A stretch of DNA of 35,547 nt, from the NCBI RefSeq assembly GCF_016908145.1, contig NZ_JAFBDI010000025.1, positions 1-35,547 of the forward strand, read 5' to 3'. The notes beneath the pieces are model-generated. The model made no database searches and had not been told where the DNA came from. It worked only from the letters and a program-made list of their open reading frames with translations. Numbering within the stretch: the first letter of the stretch is position 1; every line of letters starts with the position of its first letter. Source of the stretch: Marinitoga litoralis (GTDB lineage: Bacteria; Thermotogota; Thermotogae; Petrotogales; Petrotogaceae). Positions 22,895 to 26,348 of this stretch are shown here, piece by piece. The translations under genes were made by a program, and so were the position numbers.

Positions 22895-24340
22895 TTATCC
22901 TTTTTTATCTAAAGCTAATTTATCTTCGTTATTAGCATATCTTTTCATTCTTGTTTCGTAATTATATACTCCACGTTTAGAAGGATATTTTTCTGCATAT
23001 CCTCTTTCATACCATAATTTTTCTGCATATTCTTTCCAACCTTCTGCTAATTTATCAATCTCTGGAGCTAACTCAGTAACTACTTTTTCACTTCCAGGAT
23101 GTTGAGGAATAGCATTAAATTTCTTTACCATTGATCTAAATACCTTTGGATTATCAATAATTGGACATGGTCTGAATAAATTATTTGAATATGGTATTGT
23201 TCTCTTATATGCTTCAAAGAATGGAGATTTTATGATTTCTATAATTGATTTTTCTCTTATATTGTCAACAGCAAATTGTTGGAATACACATGGTTCTGCA
23301 TATCCTTTAGCGTTTATGTGTAAGTATTTAGCTCCAGCTGCTAAACAACCATGAGTTAAGAAACCATGGTTCCAGAAGTCTGCAACAAATGCAAACTCTC
23401 CTCCAAGTCTTTTCTTTTCAGTAACTTCAAATCTTTCATATCTTTGTTCTGGGGTTGGAACAAGATCCATTGTTGGATCCATACCTACAGGCATGAATTG
23501 ATAAATCCAAACATAAGCTACATTATTTTCTTTTAAGAAATTCCAGAATTCATCGCTCATTATTAAATCGTGATTTTTTCTTGTTGCTGTTACTGATGCA
23601 CCATATATTACGCCATATTTAGTCAATAATTCCCAAGCATTTAATACCTTCTTAAATACACCTTTACCTCTTCTCCAGTCAGTCATTTCTTCAAAACCTT
23701 CAACTGAAATGGATAATGTAGCATTACCTAATTCGGCTAATCTCTTTGCTTTTTCTTCATCAATTAAAGTACCATTAGTATAAATCATGAAATATGAATC
23801 GTTGAATTCTTCTAACATTTCAAATAAATGTGGATAAATAAATGGTTCTCCACCAGTAATTACAAAGAAATATATACCTAATTCATTAAATTGTCTAATT
23901 ACACTAAATAATTCATCTTTAGATAATTGATATTTATGACCATATAACCCAGCGTAACAACCTACACATCTTAAATTACATGCATATGTTGGACTGATAA
24001 CTGCTAATTTAGGTAAAACAACTTCATGTTCATGCATTTTTTCTTGTCTTACCTTTTCGCCAACAGCAAATTCGTTTATAATAAGGTTATTAACGATTTT
24101 TTCTACAACCTTAGGATTTGCTTTTTTAAATGTTTGAGACCAATTAACTAACATTGGATCTCTATTTTCTGCCCCTTCAGCTAATTTTCTTAATCCGCTT
24201 TTTGCAGGTTCTTTGGCGAAATTAGCCAATGTTCTTAATAATTTACCTAAATCTTCCACTTCTGCATTTCTCACAACATTTGTTACTAATTTAGCTGATT
24301 GCTTCATCATCATACTTTTCATACTATCAAGGATTTTCAT
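22895..24340 (-). CDS. Radical SAM protein with SPASM-like C-terminal cysteines
   Basis: A 481-residue radical SAM enzyme of unknown substrate. Residues 1-105 form a helical N-terminal region (methionine-rich start MKSMMMKQSAK) that I cannot assign. The [4Fe-4S] motif CNLRCVGC has Cys121, 125 and 128, and GGEP (163-166) contacts S-adenosylmethionine. Three later cysteines (Cys332 in HGCLAAGAKYLHINAKG, Cys351 in EPC, Cys392 in RPC) resemble a SPASM/twitch auxiliary cluster site. It follows tetR by 27 nt behind AAGGAGGG, so the regulator probably controls it. No peptide precursor gene is visible nearby, so RiPP maturation is not supported. Its role may involve lipid or membrane chemistry, as with other TetR-linked radical SAM genes, but this is a guess. 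Confidence 0.85.
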   Translation of the reverse strand: MKILDSMKSMMMKQSAKLVTNVVRNAEVEDLGKLLRTLANFAKEPAKSGLRKLAEGAENRDPMLVNWSQTFKKANPKVVEKIVNNLIINEFAVGEKVRQEKMHEHEVVLPKLAVISPTYACNLRCVGCYAGLYGHKYQLSKDELFSVIRQFNELGIYFFVITGGEPFIYPHLFEMLEEFNDSYFMIYTNGTLIDEEKAKRLAELGNATLSISVEGFEEMTDWRRGKGVFKKVLNAWELLTKYGVIYGASVTATRKNHDLIMSDEFWNFLKENNVAYVWIYQFMPVGMDPTMDLVPTPEQRYERFEVTEKKRLGGEFAFVADFWNHGFLTHGCLAAGAKYLHINAKGYAEPCVFQQFAVDNIREKSIIEIIKSPFFEAYKRTIPYSNNLFRPCPIIDNPKVFRSMVKKFNAIPQHPGSEKVVTELAPEIDKLAEGWKEYAEKLWYERGYAEKYPSKRGVYNYETRMKRYANNEDKLALDKKG

Positions 24341-24367: not shown

Positions 24368-24952
24368 TTAAGATATAATTTTTCCTATAATATATTCTAA
24401 AGATGGACATAATTCACCTTCTTCAAATTCAACACCAACTGACTTATAAATACCAATACCATCAATCATTGCTTGTAATATAATAGCTATAGTTTTATTT
24501 GGTACAAATTCTGACCAAAGTTCAAATAATTGAGAATAATATTCATGAAATAATTCTCCGAGCTCTTTAATTCTTTTTTTATTATGAATAGAATTTATTA
24601 AAATCTCAAAAAGTCTTAAAAGATCATCAGATGGAAATTCTTTTATTATTTTTGAATATAATTTAATAACAGCTTTAGCTTTTTCTTCTTTTGAAGTTTC
24701 TTTTGGTATTAATTTTCCAATATAATTTTTCAATCTTTCTACTAATATTCCAAAAGCTGTAATTATTAAAGTGTCTTTGCTATCAAAGTATAAATATAAT
24801 GTCCCTTTAGAAACTCCTGTTTCTCTAGCTACATCATCCATTGTAAAACTTGATAATCCTTTTGAGATAATTAAATCTAAAGCATTTTCAGCAATTTCTT
24901 TTTTTCTTTGTTCTTTATATGCATTTTTTTTGTTTTTAATGTCAGATACCAT
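24368..24952 (-). CDS. TetR/AcrR-family transcriptional regulator
   Basis: A 194-residue repressor-type protein. The N-terminal helix-turn-helix covers about 15-65 (TMDDVARETGVSKGTLYLYFDSKDTLI), a clear TetR signature. The remaining helical part should bind a ligand and dimerise; residues there give no ligand clue. GGGGTGG precedes the ATG. An operator-like box lies directly in its promoter, so self-repression is likely, and the radical SAM gene downstream shares the transcript. A second copy of the box lies 139 bp farther upstream. Confidence 0.93.
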   Translation of the reverse strand: MVSDIKNKKNAYKEQRKKEIAENALDLIISKGLSSFTMDDVARETGVSKGTLYLYFDSKDTLIITAFGILVERLKNYIGKLIPKETSKEEKAKAVIKLYSKIIKEFPSDDLLRLFEILINSIHNKKRIKELGELFHEYYSQLFELWSEFVPNKTIAIILQAMIDGIGIYKSVGVEFEEGELCPSLEYIIGKIIS

Positions 24953-24965
24953 AATACCACCCCTA

Positions 24966-24983
24966 TGACTGACTGGTTAGTCA
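24966..24983. promoter_or_regulatory. TetR operator box 1
   Basis: TGACTGACTGGTTAGTCA is an imperfect 18-bp palindrome (14 of 18 positions symmetric; outer arms TGACT/AGTCA exact). It sits just downstream of the tetR -10 box and ends about 14 bp before the tetR ATG, an ideal place for autorepression. TGACTGACTGGT-like palindromes are common TetR/AcrR sites. Confidence 0.8.
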
Positions 24984-24988
24984 ACTAT

Positions 24989-25017
24989 ATTATAATACTT
25001 TTTACAAATAGTTTCAA
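24989..25017 (-). promoter_or_regulatory. Promoter of the tetR-radical SAM operon
   Basis: On the minus strand, TTGAAA (25012-25017) and a perfect TATAAT (24989-24994) are 17 bp apart. The start would fall near 24982, inside operator box 1. Confidence 0.72.
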
Positions 25018-25104
25018 ATATGACATAATAAGTCATAAAATTGAACTGTCAGTATATAAGATTTTAAAAAAAGCATATAATAAAAATTTTGGAGTATATT
25101 TTAC

Positions 25105-25122
25105 TGACTGACTGGTTAGTCG
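25105..25122. promoter_or_regulatory. TetR operator box 2
   Basis: This 18-bp box differs from box 1 only in its last base (TGACTGACTGGTTAGTCG), in the same orientation and 139 bp away. It lies upstream of the TPP riboswitch. The sequence between the boxes (24984-25104) holds the tetR promoter and no other gene. Confidence 0.72.
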
Positions 25123-25210
25123 ATATTTTTGTCGTTCTTTAATCAAATTGTTACATAAGAATAATCACAGGATATTTAATATAATATATAATATTAGTAG
25201 AAATATTAAC

Positions 25211-25303
25211 CCGCCGGGGGAGCTCCTATTCCGGAGCTGAGATTAAGGTGGAAGCCTTAGACCCCAGCACCTGATCCGGGTAATACCGGCGTAGGGAGAG
25301 CGG
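25211..25303 (+). ncRNA. TPP (THI-box) riboswitch
   Basis: The conserved TPP aptamer elements appear in order: GGGGAGCTC, GCTGAGAT, AGACCC, ACCTGATCCGGGTAATACC and GGCGTAGGGAGAGC. P1 can form between CCGC (25211-25214) and GCGG (25300-25303). The aptamer is followed after 14 nt by an intrinsic terminator in front of thiB, so thiamine pyrophosphate should switch transcription off. TATAAT hexamers at 25180-25185 and 25187-25192 are candidate -10 boxes, but neither has a good -35. Confidence 0.95.
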
Positions 25304-25317
25304 AATCAAAAATAATT

Positions 25318-25344
25318 GCGCCTTCCGAGCCGGAAGGCGCTTTT
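25318..25344 (+). terminator. Riboswitch-controlled terminator
   Basis: A 10-bp GC-rich stem (GCGCCTTCCG, loop AGC, CGGAAGGCGC) is followed by TTTT. TTCCG in its left arm (25323-25327) can also pair with CGGAA at 25301-25305, the 3' side of riboswitch P1. This gives mutually exclusive antiterminator and terminator states: with TPP bound P1 forms and the terminator folds. Confidence 0.88.
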
Positions 25345-25370
25345 AATTTATATTATAAGGAGGTAATTAT

Positions 25371-26348
25371 ATGAAGAGAGTATTATTATTAATGATTAGC
25401 ATTATTATTATTTCATTTGTATTTGCTGAATCTTTGACAGTTTATGTGTATGATAGTTTAGATTGGATAAAAAAAGGTACTATACAAAAATTTGAAAAAA
25501 TGTATGGTGTAGATGTTAATGTTGTGGTATTAGGAGATGGAGGAAATGTATTAGCTAGGTTAAAAATGGAAAAGAAAAATCCAAAGGCAGATGTTGTAAT
25601 TGGATTAGATCAATCATTATCAGTATTGGCTATTAATGAAGATTTAATTATGTCATATAAACCATTAAATATTAGTAAAATAAAAAGTGATGATCTTATA
25701 TATGACAAAACATACCATTTAATACCATATGACTATGGTGCAATAGCAATAGTATATGACCCTGAAAAATTAGATGTTGTTCCTAAATCATTTGAAGATT
25801 TGACAAAGATGAATAAGAAACTTATTATTCAAGATCCAAGAACATCTTCTACAGGACAAGCATTTCTATTATGGACAATTGCAGTATACAAAGATCAATG
25901 GAAAGATTTTTGGAAAAGATTAAAACCTGCTATATTAACAGTAACTCCTGGCTGGAGTGAAGCTTTTGCAAAATTTGAATCTGGAGAAGCTCCTATGATG
26001 GTTAGTTATGCTACAGATGGAGCATATTCATATTATTATTATAATTCTACAAAGTACAAGGCATTTATTCCAGAAGAAGGCGCATACGTTCAGATTGAAG
26101 GTGCAGGAATAGTTAAAGGAAGTAAAAATATAGAATTAGCTAAAAGGTTTATAGAATTTATATTATTTGATGAATTCCAAAAAGAAATTCCTTTAAATCA
26201 ATGGATGTTCCCAGTAATTGACACAGAATTGCCAGAAGCATTTAAATACGCAATTATACCTAATAAAATACTTACTGTTAGTCCAGAAGATATAGATAAA
26301 AATATGGAAAAATGGTTAGAAGAATGGGAAGAAATAATGTTATATTAA
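25371..26348 (+). CDS. thiB: Thiamine/TPP ABC transporter substrate-binding protein
   Basis: This 325-residue secreted binding protein belongs to the ThiB/TbpA type. Residues 1-19 are a signal peptide (KR followed by a long Ile/Leu/Val core, likely cut after FVFA); there is no lipobox Cys. The mature part has LTVYVYDSLDW, FEKMYGVDVN, LGDGGNVLARL and ADVVIGLDQSL, as in ThiB. The TPP riboswitch directly upstream independently supports thiamine as ligand. AAGGAGGT precedes the ATG. The expected permease ThiP and ATPase ThiQ are absent: a terminator follows, and then an unrelated transporter. The protein must use components from elsewhere. Confidence 0.9.
   Translation: MKRVLLLMISIIIISFVFAESLTVYVYDSLDWIKKGTIQKFEKMYGVDVNVVVLGDGGNVLARLKMEKKNPKADVVIGLDQSLSVLAINEDLIMSYKPLNISKIKSDDLIYDKTYHLIPYDYGAIAIVYDPEKLDVVPKSFEDLTKMNKKLIIQDPRTSSTGQAFLLWTIAVYKDQWKDFWKRLKPAILTVTPGWSEAFAKFESGEAPMMVSYATDGAYSYYYYNSTKYKAFIPEEGAYVQIEGAGIVKGSKNIELAKRFIEFILFDEFQKEIPLNQWMFPVIDTELPEAFKYAIIPNKILTVSPEDIDKNMEKWLEEWEEIMLY

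What the first reader, a model, noticed from the sequence alone, without database searches (positions are those of the whole stretch)
24966..25122. Twin TetR boxes 139 bp apart at a tetR-radical SAM operon
Two 18-bp boxes (17 of 18 identical, same orientation) flank the tetR promoter region. One covers the start site; the other lies 139 bp upstream, about 13 helical turns, next to the thiamine riboswitch region. This suggests looping or joint control of a second, unseen promoter. The TetR ligand and the radical SAM product are unknown, which makes the locus a candidate sensor-response system.
Basis: partly seen in the sequence, partly recalled or inferred. Interest (0 to 1): 0.6.

Follow-up and report, generated by a model that had tools for sequence, protein, structure and literature searches.

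The report
Paired TetR operators at fixed spacing
In the heat-loving bacterium Marinitoga, a repressor gene and the conserved radical SAM enzyme gene behind it are preceded by two copies of the repressor's likely DNA target, always 139 or 140 bases apart in seven species, which suggests that two repressor molecules clamp the promoter together instead of one blocking it.

Summary
Two near-identical 18-bp quasi-palindromes (24966-24983 and 25105-25122) lie upstream of tetR. They are the only such sites in the genome, and much the same holds in all seven Marinitoga genomes held. Spacing is 139 or 140 bp in all seven, although the 53-54 bp next to box 2 have diverged nearly to the level of shuffled sequence. 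A motif model trained only on other Thermotogota ranks exactly these two sites first and second in every Marinitoga locus. The radical SAM gene is a core gene of the phylum (97 of 103 genomes). Elsewhere it is followed, or in Petrotogaceae preceded, by a TetR gene, with one such box at the start site. Only Marinitoga has a second box. In three species inserted DNA, a dispersed repeat, lies between box 2 and the thiamine riboswitch, so box 2 belongs with tetR, not with thiB. Best reading: a single-target autorepressor whose second operator at fixed distance cooperates with the first, probably by DNA looping around the promoter. Looping itself is inferred. The promoter region also holds an invariant inverted repeat (25019-25037), possibly for a second regulator. 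No evidence was found for a hidden second promoter.

The parts
24966..24983 (.). TetR box 1 (primary operator), TGACTGACTGGTTAGTCA, over the inferred tetR transcription start
   Evidence: motif score 24.9 bits with a model trained on other genera
25105..25122 (.). TetR box 2 (auxiliary operator), TGACTGACTGGTTAGTCG, 139 bp from box 1
   Evidence: 19.7 bits, second-best site of the 35.5-kb window; present in 7/7 Marinitoga, no counterpart in the other genera examined
24989..25017 (-). tetR-rSAM promoter: -35 TTGAAA (25017-25012), 17 bp, -10 TATAAT (24994-24989)
   Evidence: top-scoring promoter in 7/7 species at the same offset
25019..25037 (.). Inverted repeat TATGAC-N7-GTCATA directly upstream of -35; candidate site of a second regulator
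   Evidence: offset 53 from box 1 in 7/7; the only exact match in each of the 7 genomes; similar sequence at offset 53-54 in several other Petrotogaceae
25038..25055 (.). Degenerate TetR-box-like sequence containing TTGAACTGTCA; weak candidate third site midway between the boxes
   Evidence: offset 72 in 6/7 species but only -3.5 to 4.6 bits, and not found in G001
25052..25104 (.). Diverged spacer before box 2, length kept at 53-54 bp
   Evidence: ungapped identity 47-51% against 37% for shuffles
24368..24952 (-). tetR, TetR/AcrR-family repressor, 194 aa
   Evidence: Pfam TetR_N 7e-14; canonical TetR fold in the predicted structure
22895..24340 (-). radical SAM/SPASM enzyme, 481 aa, second gene of the operon
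   Evidence: Pfam Radical_SAM 1e-25 and SPASM; in 97/103 Thermotogota genomes
25206..25315 (+). TPP riboswitch of the divergent thiB gene; neighbour, not part of the TetR system
   Evidence: Rfam RF00059, 74.6 bits

Best explanation
This is an autoregulated, single-target TetR repressor system with a primary and an auxiliary operator. One TetR dimer binds box 1 over the start site and blocks the shared promoter of tetR and the radical SAM gene. A second dimer binds box 2, 139 or 140 bp upstream. The two complexes act on the same promoter, most likely by meeting across a DNA loop that holds the promoter and the TATGAC-N7-GTCATA element, which tightens repression and steepens the response to the unknown inducer. 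Shown here: the two sites, their near-uniqueness, their conservation, the fixed spacing, the restriction of the second site to the genus, and that the motif belongs to this operon across the phylum. Inferred: protein binding, cooperativity, looping and induction by a ligand.
For: Two full sites per genome in 7/7 Marinitoga, both here; the only extra matches are single 3-mismatch sites in G001 and G004. Spacing 139 or 140 in 7/7, while the adjacent 53-54 bp spacer is nearly randomised and the third-codon-position tree over the same species is about 3.1 substitutions per site long. The model trained on 60 non-Marinitoga genomes gives the two boxes 19.7-26.3 bits, next site at most 12.7. In G004 the two boxes differ from each other and from the genus consensus, yet keep 26.3 and 24.8 bits. 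Box 1 covers the start site, the position of the single box in other Thermotogota. Inserted repeat DNA lies after box 2 in three species, none between the boxes.
Against: No binding or expression data. TetR dimers are not generally known to form tetramers, and the predicted structure is an ordinary TetR fold with no added oligomerisation domain. Sequence data cannot prove helical phasing: 139-140 bp is 13.2-13.3 turns at 10.5 bp/turn. Another divergent intergenic region in these genomes also keeps its length within 1 bp, although at 92% identity or more in the species where it aligns well.
Confidence: 0.6

Rival explanations
1. Box 2 is the operator of a second, plus-strand promoter driving the riboswitch-thiB transcript or a small RNA, so TetR co-regulates both directions.
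For: Box 2 lies between tetR and the divergent riboswitch-thiB gene in every species where the flank is held. A plus-strand promoter candidate overlapping box 1 and the mirrored -10 appears in all seven species, though its conservation follows from the box and the minus-strand -10.
Against: No promoter-like pair at box 2 is conserved. Box 2 to riboswitch distance varies from about 100 to about 400 bp, and in three species inserted repeat DNA lies between. A thiB promoter candidate sits close to the riboswitch in most species and moves with it.
Confidence: 0.15
2. Two independent operators without physical contact: box 2 only raises the local TetR concentration or blocks read-through transcription towards tetR from upstream.
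For: TetR-family proteins normally act as dimers without looping (general knowledge). A second strong site would be useful in either role.
Against: Neither role needs an exact distance, yet spacing is held to 1 bp through a spacer of nearly random sequence.
Confidence: 0.2
3. The second box is a chance or recent duplication without function.
For: Both boxes carry the same off-centre bases in five of seven species.
Against: It is kept in all seven species over about 3 third-position substitutions per site of tree length. In G004 both boxes have changed yet stay strong sites. The flanks of the two boxes are not alike.
Confidence: 0.03

Closest known systems
Autoregulated TetR-family repressors with an operator over their own start site (e.g. 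Bacillus FadR, BetI, KstR, QacR type)
   Same: HTH and fold; an 18-bp quasi-palindromic operator over the start site and a neighbouring target gene
   Different: Here a second full operator lies at a fixed 139-140 bp, and the apparent regulon is a single operon with a radical SAM gene of unknown product
Looping repressors with paired operators (lac O1/O3, gal OE/OI; general knowledge, not tested here)
   Same: Two strong operators at near-constant distance with a promoter between them
   Different: Those proteins have a known means of bringing two operators together (LacI tetramer; GalR with HU). A TetR dimer pair has none known, and no loop has been shown here
The single-box radical SAM-TetR operon of other Thermotogota
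   Same: Same enzyme (mostly 66-82% identity), similar box at the start site, apparently one box per genome
   Different: One box, not two; outside Petrotogaceae tetR follows the enzyme gene and belongs to another TetR subgroup

Membership tests
TetR/AcrR-family transcriptional repressor | N-terminal TetR HTH domain | tested here: met
   Pfam PF00440, E 7e-14, above cut-off
TetR/AcrR-family transcriptional repressor | All-helical TetR fold with a C-terminal ligand-binding domain | tested here: met
   AlphaFold model pLDDT 85.7; many TetR structures at Z 13-16 over about 175 residues
TetR/AcrR-family transcriptional repressor | Binds a palindromic operator near its own gene | tested here: inconclusive
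   Conserved, nearly genome-unique palindromes upstream of the gene; binding not testable here
Looping (two-operator) repressor system | Two operators for the same protein with conserved spacing | tested here: met
   139 or 140 bp in 7/7 species; both sites predicted by an independent motif. That the same protein binds both is inferred
Looping (two-operator) repressor system | Protein can bridge two operators and repression depends on helical phase | not testable with these tools
   Needs gel shift, tethered-particle or reporter experiments
Named TetR subfamilies BetI / FadR (Bacillus) | NCBIfam equivalog score above the curated cut-off | tested here: not met
   BetI 55.7 bits against cut-off 201.3; FadR 43.8 against 200
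Radical SAM/SPASM enzymes | CxxxCxxC motif with Radical_SAM and SPASM domains | tested here: met
   C121, C125, C128 invariant; Pfam PF04055 and PF13186

The most novel reading that the evidence does not exclude
A TetR-family repressor that has evolved in one genus into a looping switch: two operators 139-140 bp apart enclose the promoter and a second regulator's site, controlling a phylum-wide radical SAM enzyme of unknown product. Relatives with a single operator would serve as natural controls.
Probability: 0.4. Interest if true: 0.55.

Novelty: new variant of a known kind. Interest (0 to 1): 0.42.

Why it matters
If true, it shows how a one-operator autorepressor gains a second operator and becomes a looping switch, with about 60 single-operator relatives for comparison. 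It also marks out a radical SAM gene present in nearly all Thermotogota with its own dedicated, apparently single-target repressor: an unexplained core function of this deep-branching phylum.

Tried and rejected
Riboswitch link: rejected, distance not conserved and inserted repeat DNA lies between in three species. Larger regulon: a looser 18-bp pattern gave fewer hits than the reversed control, and among the sites listed (list truncated) none other was a strong box. Inverted repeat 25019-25037 as a genome-wide regulon: in Marinitoga the exact match occurs only here, and one-mismatch matches are no more frequent than the control overall. It also scores badly with the TetR motif. A third TetR site midway is too weak to claim. 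Radical SAM as the lipid-bridging enzyme Mss: PMC13274423 describes Mss models as sharing the catalytic architecture of Tes, but neither a single-sequence nor a profile search of PDB sequences listed Tes, so this was not pursued; it is not excluded. Ligand class: fold and sequence matches spread over many TetR proteins, no call possible. Literature: none of the listed papers appears to describe this locus (judged by titles and abstract openings, and only open-licence papers are held).

Full report
Observation. The window contains TGACTGACTGGTTAGTC at 24966-24982 and 25105-25121 and no third site within 3 mismatches; chance expectation is 0.03. In the whole 2.29-Mb genome the 16-bp core with up to 3 mismatches matches only at these two places. 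The window belongs to the genus Marinitoga: one same-genus genome (G003) has a tetR contig whose length (388,096 bases), and the position of the match in it, agree with a record titled Marinitoga lauensis LG1.

Conservation in the genus. All seven Marinitoga genomes carry tetR followed by the radical SAM gene and both boxes. Box 1 to box 2 is 139 bp in four and 140 bp in three. The region has three layers: a conserved core (box 1, promoter, inverted repeat TATGAC-N7-GTCATA at offset 53, and TTGAACnGTCA or a close form ending at offset 86; 86% mean identity); then 53-54 bp of spacer with only 47-51% ungapped identity (37% for shuffles); then box 2, conserved again. Beyond box 2 sequence and length vary freely. 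A tree of third codon positions of the radical SAM gene has a total length of about 3.1 substitutions per site, so the kept spacer length is notable. As a caution, another divergent intergenic region in the same neighbourhood keeps its length within 1 bp, but at 92% identity or more where it aligns well.

A natural experiment. In G001, G003 and G005 extra DNA lies between box 2 and the riboswitch. The stretch taken from G003 matches a dispersed repeat with 29-46 matches in each of these three genomes, 21 and 3 in two others, and none in the window's genome and G006. None lies between the boxes. The thiB promoter candidate sits near the riboswitch in most species. Box 2 is therefore tied to tetR and not to thiB.

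Beyond the genus. The radical SAM protein is present, mostly at 66-82% identity, in most Thermotogota; 97 of 103 genomes have a match at E below 1e-60, including about a dozen more distant matches at 35-42%. In Petrotogaceae the order is tetR then radical SAM; in the members of other families examined, tetR comes directly after radical SAM and belongs to another TetR subgroup. A similar quasi-palindrome, TKACYGAMCGGTMARTMA, lies just upstream of the first gene; that it sits at the start site there is read from the nearby -10-like sequence. A one-mismatch search found it in 63 of 103 genomes, one site each, next to this operon where the gene position is known. A motif model built from 60 genomes outside Marinitoga ranks the two Marinitoga boxes first and second in all seven loci (19.7-26.3 bits against at most 12.7 for any other position). 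No other genome examined has a comparable second site (next best 8.6 bits). In G004 both boxes differ from the genus consensus but keep their score, which argues for selection on binding.

Proteins. TetR is an ordinary family member: Pfam TetR_N, canonical fold, no named subfamily. The radical SAM protein has an invariant CxxxCxxC and a SPASM domain; it falls far below the cut-offs of the named NCBIfam models shown, and the nearest solved sequence is SkfB, distantly. Its product is unknown.

Mechanism. Shown: site identity, near-uniqueness, conservation, fixed spacing, genus-restricted second site, and separation from thiB. Inferred: TetR occupies box 1 to block the promoter and box 2 as auxiliary operator, with contact between the two across a loop that contains the promoter and the inverted repeat. 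The inverted repeat is the only exact match in each of the seven genomes, has counterparts at about the same offset in several other Petrotogaceae, and lies just upstream of -35 where an activator would fit; that role is an inference. The helical-phase argument is weak: 139-140 bp is 13.2-13.3 turns at 10.5 bp/turn and 13.0-13.1 at 10.7.

Verdict. The boxes are real and functional-looking; the looping idea is the best reading but untested; the hidden promoter and riboswitch links are not supported. The system is a new two-operator variant of an otherwise ordinary TetR autoregulated operon.

Noticed in passing
L187 (G003:C11:179000-183500): Marinitoga lauensis has a second radical SAM gene copy (93% identical to the window's protein) without tetR or box, downstream of what reads like a metal P-type ATPase, an ArsR-type regulator and small proteins. 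It may be a real paralogue or a mixed assembly.
   Followed up: partly
L005:2330-2560 and copies in G001, G002, G003, G004, G005: A dispersed repeat of roughly 200 bp, abundant in several Marinitoga genomes (21-46 matches in four of them) and without a match in the window's genome and in G006.
   Followed up: partly
window 25019-25037: Inverted repeat TATGAC-N7-GTCATA immediately upstream of the tetR -35, arms invariant in seven species, with no other exact match in each genome.
   Followed up: partly
window 22895-24340 and 97 of 103 Thermotogota genomes: A radical SAM/SPASM protein of unknown product is a core gene of the phylum and is paired with two different TetR subgroups in different families, with gene order swapped, while the operator and its place are kept.
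   Followed up: partly
window 25206-26348: TPP riboswitch with a following terminator-like hairpin precedes thiB, a thiamine-type substrate-binding protein, with no transporter permease gene directly following it.
   Followed up: no
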